The position numbers and the translations under genes are program-made. The notes below the pieces were generated by a model that had not been told where the DNA came from, searched no databases, and saw only the letters and a program-made list of their open reading frames with translations. A DNA stretch of 24,581 bases from Alphaproteobacteria bacterium (GTDB lineage: Bacteria > Pseudomonadota > Alphaproteobacteria > RUG11792): assembly GCA_025998575.1 (NCBI GenBank), contig BNWD01000003.1, forward strand, positions 1-24,581. The letters run 5' to 3'. Of the stretch, positions 1,445 through 23,242 are shown one piece after another (position 1 is the stretch's first letter; each line of letters opens with the position of its first letter).

Positions 1445-1462
1445 GCTTGATATAACGTCAGC
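1445..1462 (+). repeat. 18-nt repeat copy 2, possible promoter before the PAAR-like gene
   Basis: Second copy of the 18-mer. Its TATAAC box (1451-1456) is preceded by TTGAAC at 1430-1435, a spacing of 15, which is short for a sigma-70 promoter. It lies about 100 nt upstream of the PAAR-like gene and is the best promoter candidate for it that I can see. Confidence is low. Confidence 0.3.
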
Positions 1463-1558
1463 TGTTACATGATTTTATTGCGTTAGTAGAAAATACTTAA
1501 TAGAATTTTCGCTGTCGCTTTGTTATGATCAATCGAATTCGTTGTTTTTGATTGTTTC

Positions 1559-1936: not shown

Positions 1937-1969
1937 GTAATTTTATAACTTAAAATTTAAATAATTCAA

Positions 1970-3250
1970 ATGCTGCTTACATTCGCGTTGAATTCATCGT
2001 ATAATGCGATTTTAGATTATTTCAGAAATGACATGCAAAAGCAGGCTGGTTTTTTCGTTTTTCTGCGCGAATCCATTCCAGGAACGATCTGGGCGATTGG
2101 CGTGTCTTCGCTGTTGATCAACATTTCGACGTCGGTCGTTTTCTCCGGCTCTGCGCTATATATGAAGAGTGCGTTTGGCGTCGCCATTTCGACGATAGCC
2201 CTTCTGGAGGCGATTGTTGAGGCTATCGCGCATTGCATTCGTATTTTCTCTGGAATTTTGAGCGATTATTTGCGAAACAGGAAATATCTAATGTGCATTG
2301 GATTTGTTTTGATCGCTGTTTCCAAGCCTTTGCTCGCCTTTTCTGGATCTGTTTTTCAAGTTTTCCTTGCGCGCACTATCGAGCGATTGGGGAATGGCAT
2401 TCAGGCGACTCCACGAGATGCTATGGTCAGCGAAGTTGCGAAAAAGGAGCAGAAGGGCGCTTGTTTCGGTATGCGCCAGAGCCTGGCCGTTGTTGGTTCG
2501 ACGCTTGGCGGGATATTGGGTGTTGTTGTGATGAGCGCGACGAACAATAGCTTTCGCGCGATGTTTCTTTATACTGGCATTCCAGCGTTTGTTGCCGTTT
2601 TGATCGTCATATTTTTTGTGAAGGAAAGCAACAGTGCGAGCGCTCAAAAATCTCTTCATCCAAAATGGAAGCTGCGCGATTGCACGCTTTTGGGCGGGAA
2701 ATTTTGGATTTTAATGGCTATTGTTTCTATTTTCATGCTGGGAAAATTCAGCGAGACGTTCATCGCTCTCCACGCCTGCGAAAATTTCGGCCTCGGGGTT
2801 GGATACGCTACGGTTATAACGACAAGTTACAACATCGTCTCGGCGCTGGTTTCGTATCCAATCGGCCGCCTGTCAGACAAAATGGACCGCCCAATCCTGC
2901 TTTTATGCGGGTTTGCGCTCTTGATTTTCTCGCATTTGCTCATCTGGTTTTCATTAAATCTTCCGATGATTTTTGCAGGAACAATGCTCTGGGGGGCGCA
3001 CATAGGAATCACGCAAAGCATATTGGCGGCGCTCGTCTCTGACTTCGTCCCACGAAATTTGCGCGGAACAGGCTTTGGTGTTTACTATCTGATAACCGCG
3101 ATTTCCAACGCTTTGGCGAGCATAACGGCAGGAATTATCGCGCAAAAAAGCGGAGAAGCGAGCGCATTCTTATTCGGGGCAGCATTCTGCTCAATCGCGT
3201 TCTTGACATTGCTGATAGCCAGGAAACACTTGAAATGCGATGAATTATAA
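1970..3250 (+). CDS. Major facilitator superfamily (MFS) transporter
   Basis: A 426-residue polytopic membrane protein with roughly 12 hydrophobic segments arranged as two six-helix halves around a basic central loop (KSLHPKWKLRD). The first-half signature GNGIQATPRDAMVSEVA, followed by GACFGMRQSLAVVGSTLGG, recalls a group of alphaproteobacterial MFS permeases. The second half has the equivalent loop YPIGRLSDKMDRP. The substrate cannot be read from the sequence. It starts 33 nt after the PAAR-like gene on the same strand, so the two could be co-transcribed. The start is uncertain: ATG 1970 has no Shine-Dalgarno, and ATG 2033 (residue 22) would give a shorter N-terminus. Intact otherwise. Confidence 0.85.
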   Translation: MLLTFALNSSYNAILDYFRNDMQKQAGFFVFLRESIPGTIWAIGVSSLLINISTSVVFSGSALYMKSAFGVAISTIALLEAIVEAIAHCIRIFSGILSDYLRNRKYLMCIGFVLIAVSKPLLAFSGSVFQVFLARTIERLGNGIQATPRDAMVSEVAKKEQKGACFGMRQSLAVVGSTLGGILGVVVMSATNNSFRAMFLYTGIPAFVAVLIVIFFVKESNSASAQKSLHPKWKLRDCTLLGGKFWILMAIVSIFMLGKFSETFIALHACENFGLGVGYATVITTSYNIVSALVSYPIGRLSDKMDRPILLLCGFALLIFSHLLIWFSLNLPMIFAGTMLWGAHIGITQSILAALVSDFVPRNLRGTGFGVYYLITAISNALASITAGIIAQKSGEASAFLFGAAFCSIAFLTLLIARKHLKCDEL

Positions 3251-3260
3251 CGCGAACAAA

Positions 3261-3288
3261 TTGCCATTTCAGCAAAAATTGATATAAT
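3261..3288 (+). promoter_or_regulatory. Predicted sigma-70 promoter for the heparinase-like gene and holB
   Basis: TTGCCA (3261-3266), a 16-nt spacer and a perfect TATAAT (3283-3288) lie just after the MFS stop and 24 nt before the ATG at 3313. This is a good match to the housekeeping consensus and suggests that the next two genes are transcribed separately from the transporter. Confidence 0.55.
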
Positions 3289-3312
3289 TATAATAAAAAG
3301 AAAAAGATTTTT

Positions 3313-4905
3313 ATGAAAGAGTATTGGAAAAATATAAAAAAGGTTTATAATGCTTTTTCAGTGTCTTTTTCTCAAAATAGCTTCTTTTATAAAGCCTCGC
3401 TTGACACTCGCAGCTCCATTTTCGCAACTGAGCGCTTCATTCCTGACTCATGGCCTGGAACGCAGAGCGCAGGCTCCAATATTCTCAACGGCATCGTTTT
3501 TTCCGAGCTATCCGATGTTCCGTTAAGTTTGGTCGAACTCATCATATATAGCCCAGTTTGCAATGGTTTCGAGGATGCTGCAAAATATGCAAACAGCTTT
3601 TTTTGGCTGCGAGATCTGCAAGCTATTGGCGGAAACAGTGCGCGAAAATATGCGAGAAAACTCATCGCGGCCTTTATTGAAAGCTATCGGGATGAGAAGC
3701 GATTTTGGACGCGCGACTTCCAATGGGCGCCAGAGGTCATTGGAGAGCGGATATGCAGTTGGATTTTTTCATATTCGTTCGTAGCCTCAGGGGCTGATGA
3801 CGATTTTCAGAAGGAAATGCTGTCTTCGTTGTGTGAGCAATATTCACATTTATTGAAATCTTATAGAGCCGAAACAGATAATTACTTGAAAATAATCGCA
3901 CTAAAGGCTATAATGTTTTGCAAATGTTTTTCGGCAAATATTGATAGACGCTCGTTAAGGAAATTTGCATCAAGATTGGACAACTGCATAACAGAAATTT
4001 TCGATAAAAACGGCATGCTTTTGACAAGAAATCCAGTTGATTATTTCAATTTGTTCAGAAGTTTGGTAGAAATAAAATTTGCGTTGAAAGGAGGGCCAAT
4101 AGAACTGAAATCATTCGAAAACCTGCCGAACATGGCGGCTTGCATACGGATGCTGAGGATGGGAGACGGTAGAATTTCTGAGTTCCAAGGTGATATCGAG
4201 CCTCAAAAATCGTTCATAATTCCGACAAGAAGCATTGTCGACGCAGCGATTTCTGTTATCGATGCAAGCAGCAGCAATGTTAATTTGCCGACAAGTTTTA
4301 GCCGAATTTCTACGAAGGAAATAACGATTATTGTCAATAATAAAATTTCTAATGTCAAGTCAAAATTTAACGATTTTAATAAACCTGGCATTAATATTTT
4401 TGATTTTGAATCCAGTTTTGGCATAAATAAATTAATTTCTCGTGCTGATATATCGATTATTTTCAATAAATTTAGAGTAAAAATAACTAAAAATTCTGAA
4501 AATTTTTATAAAATATTTAATAAAAATGGCGGATTATTATACACAGGATTTTTGCAAAGTAATAGTTTCGGATTGCCGCTTGTTGTTGAGCGCGAAATTT
4601 TTGTTTCCCTTTCTGAGCCCAAAATGAAAGGCATTGACTATATTCGCATTCCATCGGATTTTATTATTTTTTCTAGGTTTGTTTTTAATAAAAAATGCGA
4701 AATAAATAAGCCAACTCAAAAAAGCATTATAATAAATTTAGGACAAAACAAATATAAATTAAGCTCAATTTTTAAACAAAATTCGAATAATATAGCAGTG
4801 ATAAATAAGAGTAAGCTTTTGTATCCTGCTGTTGAGATTGGTGTTCGATCTGAAGCTGAGCAGGAGGTTCGAATAGACTGGGAAATAGGGAAAATGGAAG
4901 GATAG
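3313..4905 (+). CDS. Heparinase II/III-like protein
   Basis: A 530-residue protein resembling the alphaproteobacterial heparinase II/III family. It has an N-terminal (alpha/alpha)-toroid-like half (WLRDLQAIGG at 98-107; FQWAPEVIGERICSWIFSYS at 136-155; a DDDFQKEML helix after it) and a beta-rich C-terminal half ending in AVEIGVRSEAEQEVRIDWEI. Family members are annotated as polysaccharide lyases, but the role of this chromosomal alphaproteobacterial group is not established and I make no substrate claim. No signal peptide is visible. The second half is much more A+T- and Asn/Lys-rich than the first. ATG 3313 follows a promoter-like sequence, with only a poor A-rich ribosome site. It ends 4 nt before holB, so the two form an operon. 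Confidence 0.7.
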   Translation: MKEYWKNIKKVYNAFSVSFSQNSFFYKASLDTRSSIFATERFIPDSWPGTQSAGSNILNGIVFSELSDVPLSLVELIIYSPVCNGFEDAAKYANSFFWLRDLQAIGGNSARKYARKLIAAFIESYRDEKRFWTRDFQWAPEVIGERICSWIFSYSFVASGADDDFQKEMLSSLCEQYSHLLKSYRAETDNYLKIIALKAIMFCKCFSANIDRRSLRKFASRLDNCITEIFDKNGMLLTRNPVDYFNLFRSLVEIKFALKGGPIELKSFENLPNMAACIRMLRMGDGRISEFQGDIEPQKSFIIPTRSIVDAAISVIDASSSNVNLPTSFSRISTKEITIIVNNKISNVKSKFNDFNKPGINIFDFESSFGINKLISRADISIIFNKFRVKITKNSENFYKIFNKNGGLLYTGFLQSNSFGLPLVVEREIFVSLSEPKMKGIDYIRIPSDFIIFSRFVFNKKCEINKPTQKSIIINLGQNKYKLSSIFKQNSNNIAVINKSKLLYPAVEIGVRSEAEQEVRIDWEIGKMEG

Positions 4906-4909
4906 AGAT

Positions 4910-5692
4910 ATGTGTGTGACGACGAGAAGTTTTTTGGTTTATGGCAAGAATAAAGCGCAAAATTTAGGTAAATCTTATGAATTAGCGATCAATTATATGA
5001 TAACAAATAGCGCTCTTGATTCAGTTGAAGTTGAAAAATATGCGAGAAATAATGTATATCCGAATTTTTTGTTTCTGAAAAAAGCGGAGGAGGACAACGA
5101 GCTTTCTGTTGACGCCGCGCGAACTATTAACGAATTTTTATCCAGGAAAGCCGAGATTAACGGAAACAGCGCGGTCATCATAGATTCCGCCGAGCTCATG
5201 TCCAGCAACGCCGCCAATTCTCTGCTAAAAACTTTGGAAGAACCTCCAGAAAATTTTATTATAATTTTATCAACTAGCAGGCTGAGCTCCATACTGCCGA
5301 CGATAAGATCTCGTTGCGTCAAGATAAAGGTTGAGACCGAAAATATTTCTACGAACAGTTTTGACGATTGCGCTTCTTATGTAAAAAAAGTATTCAGCGC
5401 CGCAGGGAAAATCGAAAGTGATGCGTTCATAGAAAAATCAGTGAATTTTATAAAAACAGGAATGTCGAGTATTTCAGAGTTCGTGAAAGCATTGGAAGCA
5501 GGGGAGTTGGAGTTGTTTAAGGAGGTATGCTTTCTCTATGTTCACTTTCATTTATACAAGAATCCGGATTATAACTTGGCCGATATGGCATTGAAATTGC
5601 AAGATTTATTGGAGATTTCGAATGAAACATACCCAGATAAACAGAGTTTGGTGACTGCAATTTGGTGTATTTTTAAGGAGAATTTGTTATAA
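4910..5692 (+). CDS. holB: DNA polymerase III delta' subunit
   Basis: A 260-residue AAA+ family clamp-loader subunit. The diagnostic block is at residues 88-136: AVIIDSAELMSSNAANSLLK, then TLEEPP, then the sensor-1 stretch IIILSTSRLSSILPTIRSRC with the SRC motif. In the holoenzyme delta' works with DnaX and delta to load the beta clamp. The P-loop region is degenerate (YGKNKAQNLGKS, residues 11-22, in place of GPxGxGKS), and no zinc-binding cysteine cluster is present. Delta' need not bind ATP, so this may be tolerated. It is short for the family. AAGGA upstream of ATG 4910 is a fair ribosome site. The usual alphaproteobacterial neighbour tmk is not adjacent. The 3' end overlaps rluD convergently by 20 nt. 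Confidence 0.85.
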   Translation: MCVTTRSFLVYGKNKAQNLGKSYELAINYMITNSALDSVEVEKYARNNVYPNFLFLKKAEEDNELSVDAARTINEFLSRKAEINGNSAVIIDSAELMSSNAANSLLKTLEEPPENFIIILSTSRLSSILPTIRSRCVKIKVETENISTNSFDDCASYVKKVFSAAGKIESDAFIEKSVNFIKTGMSSISEFVKALEAGELELFKEVCFLYVHFHLYKNPDYNLADMALKLQDLLEISNETYPDKQSLVTAIWCIFKENLL

Positions 5693-6638
5693 TTTTGTCG
5701 ATTATTTTCAGATCTTCTGGCAGATCGGATTCGAATGATAAATTCTCGCCAGTCATCGGATGAATAAAAGAAAGCCTTCTCGAGTGCAGCGCTTGTCTTT
5801 TCAAATTTCTGATAAATTTTGGATAAATTTCTTCTATTTTCTGTTTGCCATAGACTTGATCACCGATAACGTGCGTCCCTAAATATTTCATATGTATTCT
5901 TATTTGATGCGTTCTTCCGGTCAATAATTCACAATTAATTTTCGATATAGCTTTCGTCGAAGAAAAATAAAAGCTTCTCTCTGTGTTATAAAGCGTCAGA
6001 GCCTTTTTACCAGTCGTTTCACTAACAGTATATTGCTGTCTGAGCCTCTGATGCCTTGTCAAAAAAGTCTCTATTTTGCCACATCTTTCTTTTGGACAGC
6101 CAAACACAAAGCAAGCGTATTCCCGTTTCAGGGTTTTGCCCTTTTCACAGGCAAACATATCGGAAAACGCTCTGTGCGCAGCATCTGTTTTTGCAATTAA
6201 CATCAGCCCAGACGTGTCTTTATCAAGCCTGTGAACAATCCCTGGCCGCGATTTATCACCAACATTCGCAAAATTCTCAAACTTATGCACCAACGCATTC
6301 ACAATCGTTCCAGTCTTGTGCCCAGGCGCAGGGTGACAAACGATTCCGCATGGCTTATCAATTATTATTATGTGTTCGTCTTCGAAAATTACATCTAAAT
6401 TTAGCTCCTCCGCTTCAATTTTATAGTCGTTATCATCTGTATACTCCTCGATATTCAACTCAATTTCGCACGCCTCTCGGACCTTCCACGCGCAATCTCT
6501 GACCTCTTCCGCGCCACAGCGGACAACCCCCTCCTTTATATATTTTTGCACTTTTGCTCTCGAGATGTCAAGTAATATTTTCGGGATAACTACATCTATT
6601 CTTTCGCCGATGAAATTTTCCTTGATTTTTATTTGCAT
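5673..6638 (-). CDS. rluD: 23S rRNA pseudouridine synthase of the RluD/RluA family
   Basis: A 321-residue enzyme with an N-terminal S4-like RNA-binding domain (about residues 12-60) and a pseudouridine synthase domain. The catalytic motif is GIVHRLDKDTSGLMLIAK with Asp139, the same number as in E. coli RluD. Other family signatures are IIIDKPCGIVCHPAPGHKTG and LLTGRTHQIRIHMKYLGTHVIGD. RluD modifies helix 69 of 23S rRNA; related RluC-type specificity cannot be excluded. ATG 6638 fits family N-termini. An upstream in-frame TTG at 6674 would add 12 residues and overlap uppP. It starts 7 nt after the uppP stop, so it is probably co-transcribed with tRNA-Leu and uppP. Confidence 0.9.
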   Translation of the reverse strand: MQIKIKENFIGERIDVVIPKILLDISRAKVQKYIKEGVVRCGAEEVRDCAWKVREACEIELNIEEYTDDNDYKIEAEELNLDVIFEDEHIIIIDKPCGIVCHPAPGHKTGTIVNALVHKFENFANVGDKSRPGIVHRLDKDTSGLMLIAKTDAAHRAFSDMFACEKGKTLKREYACFVFGCPKERCGKIETFLTRHQRLRQQYTVSETTGKKALTLYNTERSFYFSSTKAISKINCELLTGRTHQIRIHMKYLGTHVIGDQVYGKQKIEEIYPKFIRNLKRQALHSRRLSFIHPMTGENLSFESDLPEDLKIIDKIITNSP

Positions 6639-6645
6639 TTGTGAG

Positions 6646-7428
6646 TCATAAAAAGAATATAGCCGCGCCGACAATCACTCTGTATATGGTTATCAAAAAA
6701 AAGCCACGATTTTCCATAAATTTTATCGATGGAAATATGGCCAAAATCCCGATCAGAGCAGTTACAGCGACTCCAATTAGATTGTTTTTTTCGAAAATAT
6801 TTAAATTATTTCTATTAAAACTTTCATAAAATTCTAATGTTAAAGATCCAAAAATGCTAGGTATAGCAAGCAAAAGCGAGAAGTGAATTGCTTTTTTTCT
6901 GTCGATCAACAACATTCTGGCGGACGTCAGACATATTCCAAAACGACTGATTCCAGGAAAAATTGCGACAGCTTGGAAGCACCCGAGAATAAAAGCTTGC
7001 CAAACCGGAACTATCGACTTATCATTTCTTTTCATCATACAAGAAATCCTGTCAAAAATCAATAATATAATGCCGAATATTATGCAGACAGCGCCCATAA
7101 TTTTTGGCGAGTCAAATTCCTTGACGAAATCTCTTGCAAAATATCCTAAAATAGTGACGGGGATAGTTGCCAACAAAAGTTGCCAAAAATAAGTCTCAGA
7201 TAGTTTGGTTTTTGATGAAAATATTCCACGAAATATGTTTAAAATTTCTCGCTGAAAATAAAGCAAAAGAGTCAAAAGGCTGCCGACGTGCAATGAAATT
7301 TTGAGCGAGAAAGAGAAGCTTTCGATGTGAAATAATTTAGAGAATAAATGGAGATTGACTGACGAGCTGATGGGCAGAATTTCACCAATTCCTTGCACGA
7401 AACTCAAGATAAATATGTCAAAATCCAT
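6646..7428 (-). CDS. uppP: Undecaprenyl-diphosphate phosphatase (BacA/UppP type)
   Basis: A 260-residue integral membrane phosphatase that would recycle undecaprenyl pyrophosphate to the lipid carrier used for peptidoglycan and other envelope polymers. The first signature is QGIGEILPISSSVNLHLF (Q12xxxE16, the E/QxxxE motif). The second is PGISRFGICLTSARML, the PGxSRSxxT loop with Arg162 kept but the following Ser replaced by Phe163. The position of the conserved His (SSxxH in the family) is Asn25, with a His two residues later. Length and hydrophobicity fit the family. The frame is open further upstream, but that extension is translated tRNA, so ATG 7428 is the start; the ribosome site is weak (GAG). 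Confidence 0.85.
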   Translation of the reverse strand: MDFDIFILSFVQGIGEILPISSSVNLHLFSKLFHIESFSFSLKISLHVGSLLTLLLYFQREILNIFRGIFSSKTKLSETYFWQLLLATIPVTILGYFARDFVKEFDSPKIMGAVCIIFGIILLIFDRISCMMKRNDKSIVPVWQAFILGCFQAVAIFPGISRFGICLTSARMLLIDRKKAIHFSLLLAIPSIFGSLTLEFYESFNRNNLNIFEKNNLIGVAVTALIGILAIFPSIKFMENRGFFLITIYRVIVGAAIFFL

Positions 7429-7442
7429 ACTCAAAACGCCAA

Positions 7443-7527
7443 TGGTGCCCAGAAGAAGACTCGAACTTCCATGGATTTCTCCGCACGCACCTGAAGCGTG
7501 TGCGTCTACCAATTCCGCCATCTGGGC
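7443..7527 (-). tRNA. tRNA-Leu (anticodon CAG)
   Basis: An 85-nt class II tRNA. The acceptor stem GCCCAGA pairs with TCTGGGC, followed by discriminator A and an encoded CCA (7445-7443). The D-arm region is TGGCGGAATTGGTAGACGC. The anticodon stem CACGC/GCGTG encloses loop TTCAGGT, giving anticodon CAG. A variable arm and the T-arm GTTCGAGTC follow. It sits 14 nt upstream of the uppP start codon and probably shares its transcript. Confidence 0.95.
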
Positions 7528-7537
7528 AATAAAAAAC

Positions 7538-7567
7538 ATTATAACACATCATCGCCCGGCCTTGCAA
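7538..7567 (-). promoter_or_regulatory. Predicted promoter for tRNA-Leu, uppP and rluD
   Basis: On the minus strand, TTGCAA (7567-7562), an 18-nt spacer and a perfect TATAAT (7543-7538) lie about 10 nt before the tRNA 5' end, as expected for a tRNA promoter. Confidence 0.6.
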
Positions 7568-7581
7568 CTATTTTCAAAAAC

Positions 7582-7610
7582 TTGACAAGCGCGCGCGGGC
7601 GTGAGACAAT
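7582..7610 (+). promoter_or_regulatory. Predicted promoter for the rplU operon
   Basis: A perfect -35 TTGACA (7582-7587) is followed after 17 nt by GACAAT (7605-7610). The better TATAAT at 7610-7615 is spaced at 22 nt, too far. The spacer is unusually G+C-rich (GCGCGCGCGGGCG). It is divergent from the tRNA-Leu promoter. Confidence 0.5.
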
Positions 7611-7651
7611 ATAATTATGTATTGGTGTGTTTGCGTTGTTGGTGGGGTTTT

Positions 7652-7978
7652 ATGTTTGCGATAGTGAAGACTGGCGGGAAGCAGTATTGCGTCAAAGCTG
7701 GCGATGTCGTCAAGGTTGAGAAGCTTGAGGCTGAGCCTGGCGCAAAAATTTCGTTGTCTGATGTTTTGTTCACCGCCTCTGATTCAGCGGTGAACGTCAA
7801 CGCATCAGATGTTGGAAATGCGTCGGTTGCGGCCGAAGTGATGAAGCATGTTCGAAATAAGAAGTTGATAGTTTTTAAGAAAATTCGCCGGCATAATCAC
7901 AGGCGGAAAAATGGGCACAGGCAGTGGATGACGGTATTGAAAATCACTGATATATCATTGTCAGGCGCCGCTAAATAA
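7652..7978 (+). CDS. rplU: 50S ribosomal protein L21
   Basis: A 108-residue ribosomal protein L21 of the large subunit, binding 23S rRNA domain V. Signatures are the start MFAIVKTGGKQYCVKAGDVV, followed by KVEKLEAEPG, and the basic C-terminal core KIRRHNHRRKNGHRQ. The frame is open upstream to 7601, but ATG 7652 with GGTGGGG just before it matches the family N-terminus. First gene of the rplU-rpmA-pepF-tamB-priA run. Confidence 0.95.
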   Translation: MFAIVKTGGKQYCVKAGDVVKVEKLEAEPGAKISLSDVLFTASDSAVNVNASDVGNASVAAEVMKHVRNKKLIVFKKIRRHNHRRKNGHRQWMTVLKITDISLSGAAK

Positions 7979-7990
7979 GAGGAGATTGAT

Positions 7991-8251
7991 ATGGCGACAA
8001 AAAAAGCTGGTGGTAGTTCAAGAAACGGAAGAGATAGTATTGGCCGCCGTTTGGGCGTGAAGAGATTTGGCGGACAATATGTTTTGGCTGGAACGATAAT
8101 TCTTCGCCAACGCGGCACAAAATATAAGACGCATGATAATGTTGGCCTTGGCAAAGATCACACAATTTATGCTATGGTCGATGGATCGGTTTATTTTAGA
8201 TCCGGCAGAGATAATAGAACGTATGTTGGCGTTTCTCCTCTTGCGGCCTAG
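7991..8251 (+). CDS. rpmA: 50S ribosomal protein L27
   Basis: An 86-residue L27 whose N-terminal tail reaches the peptidyl-transferase centre. It opens with [16 protein letters not shown], then [20 protein letters not shown] and [20 protein letters not shown], all typical. No N-terminal pre-sequence (as in some Firmicutes) is present. AGAGGAG precedes the ATG. It follows rplU by 12 nt, the standard pairing. Its TAG stop directly abuts the ATG of pepF. Confidence 0.96.
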
Positions 8252-10024
8252 ATGAACACGTGGCAACTGGAAGACATATACAGCTCTGCTCACGCGAAAG
8301 AGTTGAGCTCAGATTGTGAACTGGTTGAGCGTTTAATTGAGGATTTTTGCGCGAAACACAAAAATAAATTGACTATCGACGCTTTGCAAGAGAGTATTGT
8401 TGACTATGAAACGATAATTAACTTCGCGGAAAAGATTGGAGGTTATGCGTTTTTGCAATTGCAAACGAGGCTTGATAATCACGAGGCTTTGACTTTTTTT
8501 CAAGAAAAAACAGAGTGGTTGTGTGAGGTAAGTTCGAGATTGGTGTTTTTTTGCAACGATATAGCGAGGCTTGACAAGAAAAAAGTTGAAGCCTCGATAG
8601 AGCGCTCTGAAATATTGAAAAAATATGAATCTTGGATTTCGAACTGCTTTCGATATCAACCGCATTTGCTGTCGAATGAAGCTGAAGAAGCGCTTGCTAA
8701 AAAATTTATGACGTCGAGCAATTCTTGGATTCGAATGTTCGATGAGATATTGGCGTGCTTGCAGTTCAATTTTGAAGGGGAAGAGAAAACGTTTACGGAA
8801 CTGTTGGAAATTGCAAATCATTCCGACAACGAAGAAAAAAGAGCGCGCGCGGCAAAGAGTATCTCAGAAAAACTGACTGAAAACAGTTTTTATTTCAAGC
8901 ATATATACAACAATGTGATGCTCGATCGTCGCATAGAAAATAAGTTGAGAAATTACGAAAAACCGGAATCTTTTCGTAATCTTTCTAACAATATAGATCA
9001 AGCGTCTGTGGATTTTTTGGTGGAAGCGATTGAAAGCCGTTACGAACAGACGTCGCATAGATATTATGCGCTGAAAGCGAAGATTTTAGGAAAGCAGAAA
9101 TTGGAATATTGGGACAGAAATATTTCGATAAAATTATCAAATATTTTTAATAAAAAATTCGATTATAAAGCGGCAGCTGGCTTGGTTTTGGAAACTTTCT
9201 GCGCGTTTTCTCCAATATTCGCCGATATAGCCTCGGATTTTATTAATAAAAATTGGATAGATGTCTATCCTAAACTTGGAAAGACATCTGGCGCCTTCGC
9301 ATGCAGCTGCTCGACAAGCGTTCATCCATATATTCTTCTGAATTATTTTGATACAATAAGAGATGTCTCAACTCTCGCCCACGAACTCGGACATGGCATT
9401 CATCAAGTTTTAGCGGCAAAAAACGGCGCTCTTTTGGCTGAAACTCCAATAACTTTGGCAGAGCTGGCCTCTTTGTTTGCTGAAAAATTGTTATTTGAAA
9501 AGCTGTTCGCTAATGCAGAGACGATCGAGGAGAAGATCGATTTGTTGTGTTGGAGACTGGACGACACGATAAATTCAACAATAAGGCAGATTTCGTTCTT
9601 CAAGTTCGAGAGAGATGCGCACGAACTGAGATCGACAAAGGAACTATTTGTCGAAGATTTGTCTGAAATTTTCTTGAAAAACCAAAGAAAATGCCTTGGA
9701 AATTCTGTCAATGTTGATGAATGCGTTGGGATTTATTGGACGTATATTTCACATTTCTTTCACTCTCCTTTTTATGTCTACGCATACGCATTTGGTGAAA
9801 TTTTTGTTAATGCTTTATACAAAAACTATAAGAAATTTTCTGATAATTTTGTCGAAAAATATATTAAAATGCTATCTAAAGGTGGTATTGATAGATATGA
9901 TATTGCAGCTCAAACATTTGATCTTGATCCTTCGAAGAAGGAGTTTTGGAAAGATGGCGTTGATGAAATTGAAGCGCAGATAAATTATTTAGAGAATTTG
10001 TATAATGGTCTGCTATGCAATTAA
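8252..10024 (+). CDS. pepF: M3 family oligoendopeptidase (PepF type)
   Basis: A 590-residue cytosolic zinc metallopeptidase that would degrade short peptides. The zinc site is HELGH (residues 377-381), with Glu404 in the AELAS segment as the third ligand. This resembles the alphaproteobacterial M3 subfamily with HQVLAAKxGALxAETPxTLAE. The C-terminal helices (HFFHSPFYVYAYAFGEIFV) contain the tyrosines and histidine typical of M3 enzymes. No signal peptide. Length is normal. The start codon touches the rpmA stop with no spacer, so translational coupling is likely. The last 20 nt overlap the start of tamB. Confidence 0.9.
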   Translation: MNTWQLEDIYSSAHAKELSSDCELVERLIEDFCAKHKNKLTIDALQESIVDYETIINFAEKIGGYAFLQLQTRLDNHEALTFFQEKTEWLCEVSSRLVFFCNDIARLDKKKVEASIERSEILKKYESWISNCFRYQPHLLSNEAEEALAKKFMTSSNSWIRMFDEILACLQFNFEGEEKTFTELLEIANHSDNEEKRARAAKSISEKLTENSFYFKHIYNNVMLDRRIENKLRNYEKPESFRNLSNNIDQASVDFLVEAIESRYEQTSHRYYALKAKILGKQKLEYWDRNISIKLSNIFNKKFDYKAAAGLVLETFCAFSPIFADIASDFINKNWIDVYPKLGKTSGAFACSCSTSVHPYILLNYFDTIRDVSTLAHELGHGIHQVLAAKNGALLAETPITLAELASLFAEKLLFEKLFANAETIEEKIDLLCWRLDDTINSTIRQISFFKFERDAHELRSTKELFVEDLSEIFLKNQRKCLGNSVNVDECVGIYWTYISHFFHSPFYVYAYAFGEIFVNALYKNYKKFSDNFVEKYIKMLSKGGIDRYDIAAQTFDLDPSKKEFWKDGVDEIEAQINYLENLYNGLLCN

Positions 10025-16095: not shown

Positions 16096-17250
16096 AACAA
16101 TCCTAACAAAACATGCTTATACCATTTATGATAGCATGGTTTATGGTTGCATTCACTAAAAATAATATAATGAAAGTAGGCTTTTGCATTAAAATATACT
16201 TGGCGATAAACATTAACAATGTGTTAATTAAATTTTTAACTTAGAAAAAAATACAGTGCTAAAATTATTTATAATGCAGCTCGATGTGAAACAAATATTT
16301 ATTCATAAAGCACAAAAATAACGCTTGCGAACCTCAAAAATTGGAATGATTTCGAATATTCTATAAGACTATAGTTAGCTGTAATTTTCAGTGAACTAAA
16401 ATAGTGGCAATCAGTATTTTAAATATTGTTTAGAATATAAACGAAAAAACTTATTAAATTATATTTAGTATTCTTTTGTCTACCTATTTCACAATAATAT
16501 TATTGCAACTTTAAAATTAATCTTATTTTAGAATAAACAAAATTCATAACTAATAACAGTAATTTTAAAATATAAGCTTACAATTATCATAAATTTACAT
16601 ATCTAGAATTTTTATTTTTTACGCACATACATTAACATTTGGGACGCTATAAATATATAGCGTGAAAGAATGCAGATGCTATTATAGTCAATTTATGTGT
16701 TTCAAGATTATTTGAGAAATTGCGCATTGCCTCATTTTTTCTACAGATATATTATTATATAATATATAGCGCAGGCTGTACAAAGCTAACTAATTGCGTC
16801 CTGTAATTTTTATTAAAAAAGCACAATTTTAAATTATTATGCCGAGAAATAATTTGTTGTGTTTATGGAAAAAGCACTTCAAACATTGCAGTTCTTGCGA
16901 AGAATGGAAGAATGAAATGTGGAATAAAGATTGTTAGCTAAAATATAGAGTATTGTTCTGAATTTTGTATTTGAAAGAAAAATTAATTCAGAGTAATTAT
17001 AATGATTTTTTGTGAAATATATTATACAGGTATATTCAAAAAAGAGAACGAAATTAGAAATAGTGTATTCTAAAAATATTGAAAGAGAAAATACCTAATA
17101 ATTATATAAGAATTGACAATTCCAGCTACAATAACAACGCCTTAAATTTTATTCTTTATATATTCTGCTTTAACGTTTCTCAATTTTTTGAAACTATTAA
17201 CAACATATATTTTTAATATGATTCAACACGCGTAATTTATGTGTTCGCAA
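16096..17250. other. A+T-rich gap, no genes seen
   Basis: About 1.15 kb with stops in every frame, no conserved motif and no RNA signature. It includes the proS leader at its left end and a hairpin at 16644-16663. Composition matches the other gaps of this window. I could not identify a parent gene for it. Confidence 0.6.
16644..16663. repeat. Perfect 8-bp stem-loop
   Basis: ACGCTATA (16644-16651) pairs with TATAGCGT (16656-16663) around AATA. No T-tract follows on either strand. Function unknown. Confidence 0.35.
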
Positions 17251-18312
17251 TTAAAATCCAAGCTCATAGAGCTCAATTTCAATGCAAATTTCTTTATGCG
17301 CTTCAAATTGGTTTATGCAATGTAAGAACCATTTTATCATATTTTTGGCAGTCGCTTCCCATATCTTTTTTTCACTTGGGTGCGAATTAAATTTATTGAC
17401 TTTTAACATATTTTCAAAGGTTTCATACAGCAACTCTTCATTTCGCAAGCATTTCTCTTTTTTTAAAATGTTATAAATACCGCGGAATGCTGTATAAAGG
17501 TTCCATACAGCTTGATTAATAAATTGCAACAATTTAAATAGATCTTCAGGCCATTTATGATTTTTTTTTAAGTTATCCAGCCAAGTAAATTTTTGTTCAA
17601 GATCTTCTTGTTTAAATGCCACTAAAGCAATTTTTAATTCAGCAGCGTTCAAAGTTTTAAGTTGTTGAAAAACGTATAAAATAAGAGGTACAATAAATAT
17701 CTTATGATTACTTTTTGTGTTAATTTTTTCAAGCAAATATGCAGCAAAGATTTGCTCAGAAATATCCTTTTTATCCTTCGGAATAGATAGCAAATACCTC
17801 TCGAAATCTTCCATTTTTGAAACAAGCACAGAAAAATTACCAACAAGTGGATTGTCTTTAGGAAATAAGTTTTCTGGTGAATTTTTTATATTTATTGAGC
17901 TTATTATTTGAAATTCATGATTTGAAATTATATCTGATAAAAAACGATTAACACGTTCAGAAAGCCAATCAGGAGCCTTATTTTGCCCAGCATATTGAGG
18001 AATCACAGGAGTGTTTTGTTTCATCTGCGTGATATTTGTATTTACATTCTCTGTGTCTAAAGAGCTATTTTCATTATCTTGCGGAAATTGCACAAACCAA
18101 GTTTTTTGGTCAGCGCATTTATAAGGATCCTCGTCATCGTATTCATATGAACCTGAATAGTTAATATTATCCAAATTATCCCAAAAAGTATAACAACTAG
18201 GAGTTCCATTATCAGAAGAATTCGCAACATTGCATTTAGATGTCTGGGTGTCAGCACGTGCAGTAAAATTCGGAATCGCTATAGCTATTAATAATATCAC
18301 ATAAACTTTCAT
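17251..18312 (-). CDS. Predicted exported protein of unknown function
   Basis: A 353-residue protein I do not recognise. It has a textbook Sec signal peptide, MKVYVILLIAIAIPNFTARA with cleavage after ARA, so it is exported to the periplasm or beyond. The mature N-terminus is low in order, rich in Asn, Ser, Asp and Tyr with several cysteines (residues about 27-65). Residues from about 115 onward look alpha-helical (SERVNRFLSDIISNHEFQII; AAELKIALVAFKQEDLEQKF). GGAG lies 9 nt before ATG 18312. It is flanked by gaps of over 1 kb, so it is a single-gene unit. A host-directed effector is plausible in an endosymbiont, but nothing in the sequence proves it. Confidence 0.7.
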   Translation of the reverse strand: MKVYVILLIAIAIPNFTARADTQTSKCNVANSSDNGTPSCYTFWDNLDNINYSGSYEYDDEDPYKCADQKTWFVQFPQDNENSSLDTENVNTNITQMKQNTPVIPQYAGQNKAPDWLSERVNRFLSDIISNHEFQIISSINIKNSPENLFPKDNPLVGNFSVLVSKMEDFERYLLSIPKDKKDISEQIFAAYLLEKINTKSNHKIFIVPLILYVFQQLKTLNAAELKIALVAFKQEDLEQKFTWLDNLKKNHKWPEDLFKLLQFINQAVWNLYTAFRGIYNILKKEKCLRNEELLYETFENMLKVNKFNSHPSEKKIWEATAKNMIKWFLHCINQFEAHKEICIEIELYELGF

Positions 18313-18722
18313 GAAATTTTTCTCCAGAATAATTTTATATCCATGCTTTTATTCAAGCATACAATCAGCCTCATTTCAAACTGCTTTTTTCATGAAATGA
18401 TCTCTATTCGCATTCCATAGCCAGCACAACCGCTTCCGTTCAAATTTCTAAAAATAGTTTTGTATATTCATATTTATGTGAGTAAATATTTCATCTAATA
18501 CATAAACACTTTGCGAGATTCATGCTCAAATAAAGGATCGTATTACTTATTATATAAATGATCAGTAAATGTAATTAAAAACACTTTTTCATAGAACAAT
18601 AAAATACAGATGTTACTACAACAAACAACGATTACGCTATAAATATTCAGGCTGCCAATCTAGAACTATGATAGCAAATTTTCTTGTAAGGATCATTATT
18701 TTATGCTGCCATATAATACAAG

Positions 18723-18835
18723 AAGGAGTTTAGCCCTATGGGAAATATGATATGATAGAGAGAAAGTTTCCAGTTATGCTCAGCCTTTATACTAACAACA
18801 ATAGCGCGTCTATTTCCTGCTTCGCCTCCTATTAA
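18723..18835 (+). pseudogene. Orphan translation-start region, possible gene remnant
   Basis: AAGGAG (18723-18728) sits 9 nt before ATG 18738, but that frame stops after four codons. A second ATG at 18752 opens 27 codons (MIERKFPVMLSL...ASISCFASY) and then stops. A TATAAT-like box lies just upstream. It looks like the start of a gene whose body has decayed, or a short peptide gene; evidence is weak. Confidence 0.25.
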
Positions 18836-19235
18836 TTATTTTCTATGCGCTATAGCCATTCGTTTTTCCACATAACAAACTCTGATATTCCTAATAAATG
18901 TAGCTGTATAATACCTCAACAGGCAATCCATATGTATTAGCCAATTCCAGAAAGGTGTTATCTCAATTCGTTTCTTACTAAAAGATGTTTTCTCTTAATG
19001 CGAGACATACTATTTGAATACCTCGTCAACTCCACATAGATAGCATAGCGCAAAATGGATAGCCAACTAGTCACGGTTTTGATATCCCACTCATGTGTAA
19101 TCGATAGAGATAAAACCAAAAAGAAGCTCATTCACATTTATCCATAGCTTGTAATTGAGTTTGTACTTAATTTCTTATATTAGAATATTCTCTTGTTGGT
19201 TTGTTTTTATTATTTTAGTAAAATTATAAATAGCT

Positions 19236-19261
19236 ACATTTATCTCGTTGTTCTCGATTAT
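19236..19261. repeat. 26-nt inverted repeat, left arm
   Basis: Inverted relative to 19838-19863 with 25 of 26 matching positions, about 577 nt apart. Similarity continues weakly for some 40 nt on the inner side (ATCACG and GCGTTTTT words). Read 5' to 3' it encodes YLVVLDY-like residues, and the other arm on the minus strand encodes the related YLVALDY. Confidence 0.7.
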
Positions 19262-19837
19262 AACGGCTCACTATCACGGCCGCAAGATATAGCGTTTTTC
19301 GCTCCACTATAATAAAACACTTCATTAATATATAATTTATAAAATGCAATATTTATAAAGTTTAGCCATAAAAATGACCAAGCGTTGTTTGGATAGCAGT
19401 TCCTGAATTGATATTAGTTTTTATTATTAGACAATTCAGAAATTTTATTTCAGGCGATATAGTAGTTAGATATTACTAATTTTGAACAGAGCAATTATTA
19501 CAATTACAACGTTGAATCAAAAATTTAAATTCACTTTTTTCTACATTTTTCGATTTATAATATTCACATTCTTTCATTTTATCTACAATTTATATAAACA
19601 ACTCTTGCGCAAGCGAGAGAGTTTTAACACAAGAAGAGACTCTGAATGGCTTCTTAAGTATTACATGCCTTGTAATTGATTCCTCGCATACTTTCTTATT
19701 ACAGTATCACTAATATTTCCAACAGTTTCCACAAAATATCTATTTGTTTCATAACTTCCATAGCAAGAAAACCTTCTTTTTTATCAAGGCGTAGAGAAAA
19801 AAACGCGGTTGTTTGAGTTCGTGATGGATAGCAATAT

Positions 19838-19863
19838 ATAATCGAGAGCAACGAGATAAATGT
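19838..19863. repeat. 26-nt inverted repeat, right arm
   Basis: Reverse complement of 19236-19261 with one mismatch. Its right flank (CCATAACTTGTA) also resembles, in direct orientation, 19142-19153 (CCATAGCTTGTA), so at least three copies of a degenerate element occur in this gap. Confidence 0.7.
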
Positions 19864-20002
19864 CACTATCCATAACTTGTAGACTCAAAGAAGCGCTCAT
19901 CATGTTTTAGGATTATGTATCATATAGAAGAAATGTGCTTACAGGCCTATATAGAACAAGTCTAAAACATAATTAATAAAATAGGATATCTTTACAATTT
20001 GA

Positions 20003-20029
20003 CAAACTCAAGCTTGACGCTTGAGTTTG
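20003..20029 (-). terminator. 11-bp hairpin downstream of the repeat protein gene
   Basis: CAAACTCAAGC (20003-20013) and GCTTGAGTTTG (20019-20029) form a perfect stem with a TTGAC loop. It lies about 50 nt past the stop of the minus-strand gene ending at 20082. There is no T-tract on that strand, so it may be a weak terminator or an RNA 3'-end stabiliser. Confidence 0.4.
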
Positions 20030-20081
20030 ACTTTATCAAAATCAAAGTGAGATCTTTTTTATCCGCTGAACAAACATCAGG

Positions 20082-20855
20082 TTATTTATGAGCATGAATT
20101 AGAATATCTAAATCCTCATAAATCTTTTCAAGCTCACCATCTAATAAATCTGTATGGTAAATCTTACGTAGCAGTTGCCATAAATTGATTATATGTTCAT
20201 CAATTTCATCCTGAGTTGCCGCTTCAACAATTCTTGTAACGTCTTGCTGCATAGCCGCATCTATCCACGTCCTTCTCAGAGCGCGCCTAGCATCCTTGTT
20301 CGGACTCCAATAAGTTAGATGATCCAAATCCGCATAAATCTTCTCAAACTCATCATCGGAAATATCTGTATGGACAGCATATTTCATCAGTAGCTTTAAT
20401 TTGATTATACGTTCATCAACTTCATCCTGAGTTAGCGCTTCAACATCTCTTGCAACGTCTTGTTGCATAGCCGCATCTATCCACGTCCTTCTCAGAGCGT
20501 GTCTAGCATCCTCGTTCCGACTCCAATAAGTTAGAAGATCCAAATCCGCATAAATCTTCTCAAGCTCATCATCGGAAATATCTGTAGGTAAAGACTCATT
20601 TAGCAGTTGCCATAACTCATTACGCCACTCAATAATGTCGTCCTCATCCGCCACATTAGCAAATTCAGAAAAAACATCTGCTTGCACAGCATAATCTATG
20701 CGCTCCCTTATCTGATTATACCTAGCGGCCTCTCCCACAACATTCTGGTTGGGATAAAGAATATCATTCGCATAAGAATTCGCAGTAGAAGCTAAGCAGC
20801 AGCCAACCGAGCAGCATAGCAACTTTAAACTTAACAATTTTCTTAATTTCATCAT
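20082..20855 (-). CDS. Exported protein with 72-residue tandem repeats, unknown function
   Basis: A 257-residue protein I cannot assign. The signal peptide MMKLRKLLSLKLLCCSVGCC is followed by LASTANSYA, with likely cleavage before NDILYP. The mature part is an acidic, helix-rich repeat array: a degenerate half unit (residues 52-90), two full 72-residue units (91-162 and 163-234, 54 of 72 identical) and a truncated unit (235-257). The unit core is TDISDDELEKIYADLD, then TYW..N.DAR.ALRRTWIDAAMQQDV, then TQDE.DE.I. Alpha-solenoid-like, so a protein-binding scaffold is possible (inference). Excellent AAAGGAGG ribosome site before ATGATG. It shares a 33-nt upstream element and start with the gene at 22371. 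No sign of decay. Confidence 0.75.
   Translation of the reverse strand: MMKLRKLLSLKLLCCSVGCCLASTANSYANDILYPNQNVVGEAARYNQIRERIDYAVQADVFSEFANVADEDDIIEWRNELWQLLNESLPTDISDDELEKIYADLDLLTYWSRNEDARHALRRTWIDAAMQQDVARDVEALTQDEVDERIIKLKLLMKYAVHTDISDDEFEKIYADLDHLTYWSPNKDARRALRRTWIDAAMQQDVTRIVEAATQDEIDEHIINLWQLLRKIYHTDLLDGELEKIYEDLDILIHAHK
20085..20585 (-). repeat. 216-bp tandem repeat within the exported-protein gene
   Basis: Unit 1 is 20370-20585, unit 2 is 20154-20369 and the partial unit 3 is 20085-20153. DNA identity is very high in the central part: blocks at 20251 and 20467 are 216 nt apart and nearly identical over about 40 nt. This indicates a recent duplication, or repeat homogenisation by recombination. 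Confidence 0.9.
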
Positions 20856-20891
20856 AATTAAACCTCCTTTTAAAAAGCATATTAATACCTG

Positions 20892-20924
20892 ACTGAGAAT
20901 ATTTCTTTTGGCAATACCTCCGTA
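20892..20924 (-). promoter_or_regulatory. Shared 33-nt upstream element, copy 1
   Basis: On the minus strand it begins TACGGAGGTATT and ends AATATTCTCAGT. It matches 22405-22437 at 26 of 33 positions without gaps. It lies 36 nt upstream of the ATG of the repeat protein. A TTTTGAAATAT word precedes both copies. Unlike copy 2, no strong -35/-10 pair is visible before it; it may be an operator, an RNA leader element or part of the promoter. Confidence 0.6.
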
Positions 20925-20958
20925 TCTTAATGATATTTCAAAAACTACTAAGAAAATG

Positions 20959-21309
20959 TTAAAAGAAATCGTAAATATGCTCGTAACAACAACTACCTGC
21001 TATCTTTGACGAAATATTTTCAACAAATTTTATTTGAGATATGTTGCTGGAGAGATATTTATTGAAAATAGCGTTTGCAATGGCAACAAAGTGTTCGAAT
21101 TGCGGCAAAAGCAGTACTTTACAGAGAAAAAACGCTGTTGGCAGACACAGAGCTAAAATACAAAAACGCCAATAGATCAAGGTAGAGAGCTTAACGAGAG
21201 CTAGCACAGGTAACACACATTTATCAAATATGTTACAAATCTCAGAGTTATGAAAATAAATATTACAAAATATATCATTTAATAGAAATTTAGAGTCGTT
21301 TTTAGACAA
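20959..21309 (-). CDS. Doubtful small membrane or exported protein
   Basis: A 116-residue frame starting with TTG 21309 (AGGTAGGTG before it is a possible ribosome site; an in-frame TAA lies three codons upstream of that TTG). It has one hydrophobic stretch (about residues 33-58, VLPVLALVKLSTLIYW then FCILALCLPTAFFL) and a C-terminal part with some helix character. No homology is recognised. It lies between two exported-protein genes on the same strand. It could be a real small protein, a remnant of a larger one, or chance. Confidence 0.3.
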   Translation of the reverse strand: MSKNDSKFLLNDIFCNIYFHNSEICNIFDKCVLPVLALVKLSTLIYWRFCILALCLPTAFFLCKVLLLPQFEHFVAIANAIFNKYLSSNISQIKFVENISSKIAGSCCYEHIYDFF

Positions 21310-21449
21310 ACACCTACCTTATCTATTGAATCTAATAGCGTGATTCCTATCTTTTTTTATATTCCTTATAATTCATGATAAAATTTATTAAAATATGTAA
21401 TCACCTATTAAAATCCAGAAATCTTACAACCTTTATCTCCAAGCATTGT

Positions 21450-21512
21450 TATTGTGTCACCCATGCATATAGGTACACTAGTCAAACCAATGCATGTTAA
21501 GGTGTCACAATA
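21450..21512. repeat. Imperfect long inverted repeat
   Basis: TATTGTGTCACC (21450-21461) followed by CATGCAT pairs with ATGCATG (21490-21496) followed by GGTGTCACAATA (21501-21512): one mismatch in the outer 12 bp and a 4-nt bulge. It lies about 70 nt downstream of the minus-strand gene ending at 21581. It could be a transcript-end structure, a protein-binding site or the footprint of a small inverted-repeat element. Confidence 0.5.
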
Positions 21513-21580
21513 GAAAAGGAAGTCTGTTATAGACTTACATATCAGAAGAATCGCTTTGCAACTCTTCCACTAAATGTTTA

Positions 21581-22371
21581 TTAGTTTACTCCAAAACAAA
21601 CGTTTTGTATATTTTTGTGCAATGCAGCACAATCAAAAGTTCGAAGGTCAAATTGGCCATAATCATTAAACTTGCATATGTGACGAACACAAAGTAAGAA
21701 CATGCTAAGTCGTCTGTCAATGCTAGGATTTAAATAATCTTCAATATTTGTGAATACGAGGCCAAATTGCAAGTTATCAATTGTGGCATAGTTGTCGGAA
21801 CAAGTACGCTGTAAAAACCATGCGCGTATGTTCTTGAGATCATCCACCGTGGGAATATCACGTGTGCACGTTTCAGCATGCGCCCTCAGCGTGGAAACAT
21901 TCCACTTAGAACAAAGTTCAATCAACGCAAAAACACGCCAGAGAGAGTCACGTAATTTATTTTCGATTTGGAGCATGTCTTCGCTCAAGCGCTCTAAACA
22001 ATTTTGTATAGTTTTCACAACTAAACCAGAAAAAATGGCAGTTCCTTCAGTAGCAATTCCTTGAGTAACCAGCCAAAGACGATAGCCGCTCAACAAAAAA
22101 GACCGGTTCGCATCATTTTCAAAGAGATAGCGTAGACTCGTAGCAGCCTGGCTGTGTAGGTTATCTACAGCGTACCTTTTGGCAACATTACGATCACGAT
22201 AAATTTCCAGTATTTGTTGTGGGTCGTGAAATATTTGGTCTTGAGTTGCGGCAGCATTTTCAACAACAGGCACAACAGCGTTATCTACACATACGGCATT
22301 ATTAACGCTAGAAATGCCCCCACAACAACAGCAATAGCCAAGCATAGCACTAACTTCTTTAATTTCATCAT
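21581..22371 (-). pseudogene. Exported protein gene with a frameshift in its signal peptide
   Basis: From ATG 22371 (AAGGAG eight nt upstream) the frame encodes a signal peptide, MMKLKKLVLCLAIAVVVG, but then hits TAG after 28 codons. The frame one nt away is open from there to 21581, and its own first ATG (22345) has no ribosome site and would start MLGYCCCCGG. The frames join at GGGGG (22321-22317). One extra G, or a -1 slip, gives MMKLKKLVLCLAIAVVVGG followed by ISSVNNA and a cleavage site, 263 residues in all. The body is helical and cysteine-containing, with no recognised domain. The long body frame without other damage argues for recent loss, phase variation, recoding or a base-call error. 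The start and upstream element match the gene at 20855. Confidence 0.7.
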
Positions 22372-22404
22372 ATTAATTACTCCTTCATAAAATACATACA
22401 CAAT

Positions 22405-22437
22405 ACTGAGAATATTATTTTTAATAACACCTCCGCA
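22405..22437 (-). promoter_or_regulatory. Shared 33-nt upstream element, copy 2
   Basis: On the minus strand it begins TGCGGAGGTGTT and ends AATATTCTCAGT; 26 of 33 positions match 20892-20924. It lies 33 nt upstream of ATG 22371 and just downstream of the predicted transcription start, so here it would be in the 5' untranslated RNA. Confidence 0.6.
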
Positions 22438-22450
22438 CTTCCTGAGTCTT

Positions 22451-22479
22451 ATAATACGCAATACTTAACAACTTGTCAA
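22451..22479 (-). promoter_or_regulatory. Strong predicted promoter for the frameshifted exported-protein gene
   Basis: Minus strand: perfect TTGACA (22479-22474), a 17-nt spacer and TATTAT (22456-22451). Transcription would start near 22444, giving a leader of about 70 nt that contains the shared element and the AAGGAG site. Confidence 0.7.
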
Positions 22480-22495
22480 TATAATATTTCAAAAT

Positions 22496-23242
22496 TTATA
22501 GCGTCAAAATCTCTGTTGAGTTGTCAGTGACGGCGATGGTGTGTTCGAATTGAGCTGATAGTGATTTGTCGACAGTCGTTGCTGTCCAGCCGTCTTTTTG
22601 GACTTTTGTTTTAAAAGAGCCGGCGTTTATCATAGGTTCTATTGTGAAGAACATGCCTGGCAGTATTTGCTCTCCTTGGTCTCCAGAGGCGTAGTGAAGG
22701 ATAACTGGTTCATCGTGGAAAAGCTGGCCTATGCCGTGTCCGCAATAGTCTCTGACGATTGAAAAGCCGTGTTTATCAACAAATTTTTGAATAGCTTTCC
22801 CGATATCGCCGAAGTATCCGCCAGGCTTAACGGACTTTATCCCTTCATATAACGCGTCTTCAGCGACTTTAACGAGCCTTTCAGCAAGCTTCGTTGTAGA
22901 GCCTACGATAAACGTTTTGCTCGTGTCACCGAACCAGCCGTCCAAAATGACTGTCACGTCGAGGTTGACTATGTCGCCGTTTTTCAACTTATAGCTCCCT
23001 GGAATGCCGTGGCAGACGACGTTATTGACGGAAATGCAAGTTGACTTAGGAAAGCCGCGATAGCCAAGAGTAGCGGAAGTTGCTCCGTGCTCAGCAATAA
23101 AATGTGCGCAGAGATCGTCTAAGGATTCTGTAGAAGCTCCATCTTTTATGTGTGGCTCGATAAAAAGCAAAACGTTCCTGGCCAATTGACAGGCCTTTCT
23201 CATCTGCGCTATTTCTTCCTCTTTATAAATTCTTATATTCAT
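22496..23242 (-). CDS. map: Methionine aminopeptidase, type I
   Basis: A 248-residue enzyme removing the initiator methionine from nascent proteins in the cytosol. All metal and catalytic residues of the family are visible: His78 (VCHGIPG), Asp95 (NLDVTVILDGW), Asp106 (FGDTSKTF), His169 (YCGHGIGQ), His176 (FHDEP), Glu202 (TIEPMI) and Glu233 (QFEHTI). They correspond to E. coli His79, Asp97, Asp108, His171, His178, Glu204 and Glu235. No N-terminal zinc-finger extension. ATG 23242 follows the comEC TAG with no gap, so it depends on the same transcript and coupled translation. Confidence 0.96.
   Translation of the reverse strand: MNIRIYKEEEIAQMRKACQLARNVLLFIEPHIKDGASTESLDDLCAHFIAEHGATSATLGYRGFPKSTCISVNNVVCHGIPGSYKLKNGDIVNLDVTVILDGWFGDTSKTFIVGSTTKLAERLVKVAEDALYEGIKSVKPGGYFGDIGKAIQKFVDKHGFSIVRDYCGHGIGQLFHDEPVILHYASGDQGEQILPGMFFTIEPMINAGSFKTKVQKDGWTATTVDKSLSAQFEHTIAVTDNSTEILTL

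What the first reader, a model, noticed from the sequence alone, without database searches (positions are those of the whole stretch)
22317..22371. Secreted-protein gene switched out of frame at a G5 tract in its signal peptide
A strong promoter, a strong ribosome site and a good signal peptide are followed by a stop in one frame, while a 250-codon body is open in the next. The frames meet exactly at GGGGG (minus strand, 22321-22317). One added G restores a signal peptide with a cleavage site. Options are slipped-strand phase variation of an exported protein, -1 recoding on the G tract, recent pseudogenisation, or a base-call error. The otherwise clean body suggests the function was lost recently or is retained.
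Basis: partly seen in the sequence, partly recalled or inferred. Interest (0 to 1): 0.78.

Follow-up and report, generated by a model that had tools for sequence, protein, structure and literature searches.

The report
Frameshifted gene for a secreted protein
A bacterial gene for an apparently exported protein of unknown kind has its export signal and its body in different reading frames, most likely because an ordinary small insertion or deletion broke it recently rather than because it is an on/off switch.

Summary
In detail: on the minus strand a promoter-like site (22479-22451) and a ribosome site precede a start at 22371. That frame stops at 22287-22285, while a 254-codon body (22345-21581) is open in the next frame. 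'The frames meet exactly at G5' does not hold. Both frames are open over 22372-22288, and two relatives of the leader and signal peptide in the same genome (b, window 20855; c, contig C23:7553) place the switch at about 22351-22330, upstream of G5. A null model reached that advantage for both relatives in 2 of 1500 and 0 of 1000 trials. No relative of the body was found. On the two contigs examined, I judge 4 of 7 orphan secreted-protein genes to be out of frame, against 0 of 15 Pfam-matched genes (one-sided Fisher 0.005; 0.023 if gene d is counted intact). Best reading: recent pseudogenisation in a fast-changing set of secreted-protein genes. Sequencing error is less likely; phase variation or recoding at G5 is unlikely. 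Raw reads and a same-genus genome were not available. The reuse of one promoter-leader-signal start in front of unrelated bodies is the more interesting part.

The parts
22350..22494 (-). Leader cassette a: promoter, 5' UTR with GGAGGTGTTA, Shine-Dalgarno AAGGAG and first signal-peptide codons
   Evidence: similar to b (score 74, best of 500 shuffles 43) and to c (score 66, best of 1000 shuffles 44)
22451..22479 (-). sigma-70-like promoter site TTGACA-17-TATTAT
   Evidence: 11 of 12 consensus positions; 11 promoter-like sites in 20000-22600 against a shuffle mean of 8.7, this one the best
22285..22371 (-). Frame A: start ATG and hydrophobic signal-peptide-like N-terminus, ending at TAG 22287-22285
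22288..22372 (-). Overlap in which frame A and the body frame are both open
22330..22351 (-). Most likely place of the frame switch, from alignment with the signal peptides of b and c; the upstream edge is soft
   Evidence: no homopolymer or simple repeat in this stretch
22317..22321 (-).
21581..22345 (-). Body ORF, 254 codons from its first ATG; orphan
   Evidence: only itself found in the 5.8-billion-protein database; no Pfam or NCBIfam family up to E 1 and no PHROG up to 0.01
20082..20855 (-). Gene b: intact gene (257 codons) with a related leader and signal-peptide start; body holds about 2.4 copies of a 216-nt repeat; orphan
20834..20976 (-). Leader cassette b
17251..18312 (-). Further intact gene with a signal-peptide-like N-terminus (353 codons), no family match; its leader is not of this type

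Best explanation
It is a recently broken member of a set of lineage-specific secreted-protein genes. Shown: promoter, leader and the start of the signal peptide resemble those of two other genes of the same genome (b in the window, c on contig C23), whose bodies show no similarity to this one. The signal peptide of this copy begins in one frame and the body lies in the next. Alignment with b and c puts the frame break at about codons 7-14 (22351-22330), before the G5. Inferred: a small insertion or deletion in the signal peptide stopped export of the body. The body has no stops yet because the loss is recent, and selection on these genes is weak or fluctuating, as the other out-of-frame members on contig C23 suggest. 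The function of the body is not known; export to the periplasm, surface or host is the inferred fate of the intact form.
For: Leader a resembles b (0 of 500 shuffles) and c (0 of 1000). b and c place the frame switch upstream of G5: for switches after codons 7-14 the scores are 51-58 (b) and 59-70 (c), against 38-41 and 40-42 at the G5. With random hydrophobic codons, b's advantage is reached in 12 of 1500 and 9 of 1000 trials, c's in 2 of 1500 and 12 of 1000, both together in 2 of 1500 and 0 of 1000. Of 7 orphan secreted genes on the two contigs, a, c, d and e are judged out of frame, c with several switches; none of 15 Pfam-matched genes there is. Of 45 further open pieces of 45 or more codons in the gaps, 40 were scanned and none reached a Pfam cut-off, so no broken conserved gene shows.
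Against: The body has no further break in 254 codons, which also fits a gene still in use. Two of three frame-overlap zones (a and d) contain a G5 or G6 run, which fits slippage at G runs. The alignment scores have a lower second peak downstream of the G5 (51 for b, 47 for c). The cysteine matches that drive the placement are coupled to valine codons in the other frame; the null allows for this but rests on two paralogues. c was first a weak hit (E 0.365), and b against c upstream of the ATG is reached by 9 of 1000 shuffles. The codon signal of the body is weak. No same-genus genome or raw reads could be compared.
Confidence: 0.72

Rival explanations
1. Base-call or assembly error: the gene is intact in the cell and the contig is wrong at one base.
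For: Draft genome in 171 contigs, 64% complete; one copy of the sequence, no reads available.
Against: 0 of 15 Pfam-matched genes on the two contigs are broken while 4 of 7 orphan secreted genes are judged so, so random error would have to fall on one gene class. The favoured switch zone has no homopolymer.
Confidence: 0.13
2. Slipped-strand phase variation: the tract length turns export of the protein on and off.
For: A G5 lies inside the frame overlap of a and a G6 inside that of gene d on C23; exported proteins are typical targets of phase variation (recalled). One meningococcal C5/C6 tract varies between strains (PMC5084427, passage).
Against: Switch placed upstream of the tract. Tract short (PMC5084427 section 19). 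Four of the five G or C runs of 5 or more in the window lie in intact conserved genes. Gene e has no run in its overlap zone.
Confidence: 0.06
3. Recoding: -1 frameshifting in translation, or polymerase slippage in transcription, joins signal peptide and body in part of the products.
For: The direction of the shift fits -1 (my reading). Polymerase slippage at poly(A) tracts is reported to rescue frames in Buchnera (PMC2831843, passage).
Against: Predicted structure around and after the G5 is no better than chance: z -0.24 and -0.58. No long A run here. b is in one frame throughout. No relative of the gene to show conservation.
Confidence: 0.04
4. Two separate products: a 28-residue membrane peptide from frame A, and a non-secreted protein from ATG 22345.
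For: Both frames are open, and the peptide is hydrophobic after its lysine-rich start.
Against: Leader and N-terminus resemble genes whose signal peptide continues into a body; the ATG at 22345 has only a weak ribosome site (by eye).
Confidence: 0.05

Closest known systems
Pseudogenes in reduced genomes of host-associated bacteria (general knowledge, recalled)
   Same: Small genome, long stretches without recognisable genes, lineage-specific secreted genes out of frame while Pfam-matched genes stay open
   Different: The body is still open over 254 codons, so the loss would be recent; host and lifestyle are not known here
Terminal reassortment of secreted effectors (recalled; only a search listing was seen)
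   Same: One expression and export start found in front of unrelated bodies
   Different: The N-terminus looks like a Sec-type signal peptide, not a type III signal; fast divergence of the bodies would give the same picture and was not excluded
Slipped-strand phase-variable genes of Neisseria (PMC5084427: passages and section 19 read)
   Same: Frame change near a mononucleotide run in a gene for an exported protein
   Different: Tract of 5 only, switch placed outside it, variation not shown

Membership tests
Recent pseudogene | reading frame interrupted relative to intact homologues | tested here: met
   signal peptides of b and c continue in one frame, this copy does not; tested for the signal peptide only, the body has no homologue
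Recent pseudogene | no functional product made | not testable with these tools
   no proteome or reads
Recent pseudogene | decay elsewhere in the same gene class of the genome | tested here: met
   4 of 7 orphan secreted genes on two contigs judged out of frame, 3 of 7 if d is counted intact; the other 169 contigs were not surveyed
Slipped-strand phase-variable gene | frame switch located in a simple repeat able to slip out of frame | tested here: not met
   switch placed at about 22351-22330, no such repeat there
Slipped-strand phase-variable gene | tract length varies within or between strains | not testable with these tools
   no reads; no same-genus genome among the relatives
Programmed -1 frameshift gene | stimulatory structure at the slippery site | tested here: not met
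   z-scores -0.24 and -0.58 for two stretches
Terminal-reassortment family | same N-terminal export cassette on unrelated bodies | tested here: met
   leaders of a, b, c similar, bodies not; signal peptides of d, p466, e similar
Terminal-reassortment family | bodies traceable to other genes, showing recombination | tested here: not met
   no homologues of the bodies of a, b and p466 other than the contigs' own proteins

The most novel reading that the evidence does not exclude
The genome keeps a reservoir of orphan bodies behind a few reused promoter-leader-signal-peptide cassettes. Members are parked out of frame with their export signal and can be returned to use by small indels or recombination, so this gene is a stored silent copy rather than a dead one.
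Probability: 0.07. Interest if true: 0.7.

Novelty: new member of a known kind. Interest (0 to 1): 0.3.

Why it matters
It shows that the striking G5 layout is probably incidental, and that the more informative signal is a reused expression-and-export start in front of unrelated orphan bodies, several of them out of frame. If that holds genome-wide, the lineage would be a case for studying how bacteria with small genomes turn over exported proteins.

Tried and rejected
Homologues of the body: protein database (only itself); 59 genomes, the own one included (three weak matches elsewhere at E 0.003, 0.0055 and 0.07, the second across two stops; only that locus was read); species genomes (20 stretches matched a pattern, none encodes a relative); plasmids (none); phages (one 39.6% match over 19% of the query at E 0.1, taken as chance); solved structures (best E 0.44).

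Structure prediction of the body without an alignment gave mean pLDDT 32; no fold search was made on it. Rfam gave three sub-threshold snoRNA matches. The two leader RNAs fold no better than shuffles.

The leader pattern of a and b occurs in 1 of 59 genomes, the own one. The leader model was built from a, b and c, which therefore match it by construction; beyond them the own genome gave four matches at E 0.06 to 3.3, read and judged not to be leaders of this kind. In 39 relatives the best match was E 0.006, and 25 of 40 genomes, the own one included, had a match at E up to 1; four of these matches were read and lie in or before ordinary reading frames, the rest were not read.

Synteny: of 29 map loci compared, only G009 shows map next to comEC, and its contig ends just beyond map; the loci reach only about 1.5 kb. 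ProS loci were fetched but not compared further. The organism could not be named: the 80 kept map relatives in species genomes are at most 59% identical and are labelled Alphaproteobacteria, or only Proteobacteria or bacterium; within its own family map reaches 72%.

In the first count the 15 conserved genes included the 530-codon ORF at 3313-4905, which turned out to have no Pfam match; it was replaced by the DUF4280 gene, so the number stayed 15. The counts 15, 7 and 4 were typed into the Fisher formula by me. Fragment f on C23 was left out of the 7.

Full report
Setting. The window is contig C3 of a draft genome of 855,653 bases in 171 contigs, 64% complete. The 34 relatives of the same family among the genomes have 0.5 to 1.1 million bases, and none is of the same genus. 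The map protein points to Alphaproteobacteria (80 kept loci, at most 59% identity). By Pfam the window holds DUF4280, MFS, DNA polymerase III delta', pseudouridine synthase, BacA, L21, L27, M3 peptidase, TamB, PriA, a class II tRNA synthetase (ProS-like by my reading), M24 peptidase (map) and a ComEC-type competence protein cut by the contig end.

Observation. On the minus strand, after map, lie a promoter-like site TTGACA-17-TATTAT, an AAGGAG ribosome site and an ATG at 22371. The first frame reads a lysine-rich start and a hydrophobic core and stops at 22287-22285. The next frame is open for 254 codons from ATG 22345. None of 20000 shuffles of the body stays open and the other five frames hold 8 to 28 stops. 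The codon signal of the body is weak.

Where the frames part. Both frames are open from 22372 to 22288, so the G5 is one possible joint among many. Two related cassettes exist: b, before the intact gene at 20855, and c on contig C23, first seen as a weak DNA hit (E 0.365) and then read. Leader a resembles b (0 of 500 shuffles) and c (0 of 1000); b against c is clear with the coding start (0 of 1000) and weaker without it (9 of 1000). The signal peptides of b and c are rich in cysteine; the body frame of a is too, upstream of the G5. Scoring every switch point with the two frames kept apart gives 51-58 (b) and 59-70 (c) for switches after codons 7-14, against 38-41 and 40-42 at the G5; the scores fall off slowly on the upstream side and have a lower second peak downstream of the G5 (51 and 47). 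Because valine codons in one frame give cysteine codons in the next, I ran a null with random hydrophobic codons. For a generic core, b's advantage was reached in 12, c's in 2 and both in 2 of 1500 trials; for the target's own composition in 9, 12 and 0 of 1000. The switch zone has no homopolymer or simple repeat; a (TGT)3 starts at its edge, 22330, and cannot change the frame by whole units.

What the gene is. No homologue of the body was found (weak matches are told under tried and rejected) and no family. The bodies of a and b are unrelated by protein (best E 0.42) and by DNA (322 of 500 shuffles score as well). Contig C23 carries more such genes around enolase and dnaK: d, p466 and e share a second signal-peptide type, and p466 has no homologue besides its own contig's protein. 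Of seven orphan genes with signal-peptide-like starts on the two contigs (a, b, the 353-codon gene; c, d, p466, e), I judge a, c, d and e out of frame. For e the signal peptide and a 253-codon open stretch lie in different frames (0 of 20000 shuffles stay open), though the codon score of the signal-peptide stretch is negative (-0.19). For d the second frame is open over 104 codons (83 of 20000 shuffles). c changes frame more than once. None of 15 Pfam-matched genes on these contigs is broken. Since those were found as open frames, I also listed 45 open pieces of 45 or more codons in the gaps and scanned 40 of them: none reached a Pfam cut-off, one sub-threshold match. Fisher's one-sided value is 0.005, or 0.023 with d as intact. 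C23 was examined because it holds cassette c, so the sample is small and not random; signal peptides were judged by eye.

Mechanism. The simplest account is an ordinary small indel in the signal peptide of a gene under weak or fluctuating selection (inferred). Sequencing error would have to fall on this class of genes only. Phase variation at G5 lacks the right place and a long tract; in its favour, gene d has a G6 in its frame overlap, while e has no run. Recoding lacks a structure beyond chance.

Comparison. G/C tracts under 7 repeats that vary by one unit are a weak class in a meningococcal survey (PMC5084427, section 19 read), though that paper mentions one C5/C6 tract varying between strains (passage). 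Slippage at poly(A) in Buchnera is mentioned in PMC2831843 (passages only). One expression-and-export start before unrelated bodies resembles terminal reassortment of effectors (recalled; listing only), but rapid divergence of the bodies is not excluded.

Noticed in passing
L132 (G000:C23) 1402-8400: Series of orphan secreted-protein genes and fragments on both sides of enolase and before dnaK; signal peptides of d, p466 and e are related, bodies are not.
   Followed up: partly
L132 1788-1857: Frame overlap of gene d contains a G6 run (1828); its place relative to the break could not be fixed for lack of a paralogue.
   Followed up: partly
window 20099-20615: The body of gene b holds about 2.4 copies of a 216-nt (72-codon) repeat.
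   Followed up: no
window 20893-20922 and 22406-22435: Leader block GGAGGTnTT...AAAA..AATATTCTCAG upstream of the likely ribosome site, alike in a and b and shortened in c; no usual start codon at suitable spacing by eye, function unknown.
   Followed up: partly
window 16100-17250 and 18313-20081: Long AT-rich stretches (24% and 31% G+C) without convincing genes; open pieces of 45 or more codons there have no Pfam match.
   Followed up: partly
window 1559-1936: DUF4280 protein (Pfam E 1.6e-26), a PAAR-like family by recall, which hints at a contractile injection system.
   Followed up: no
window 20959-21309: 116-codon ORF with only weak family matches; coding status unclear.
   Followed up: no
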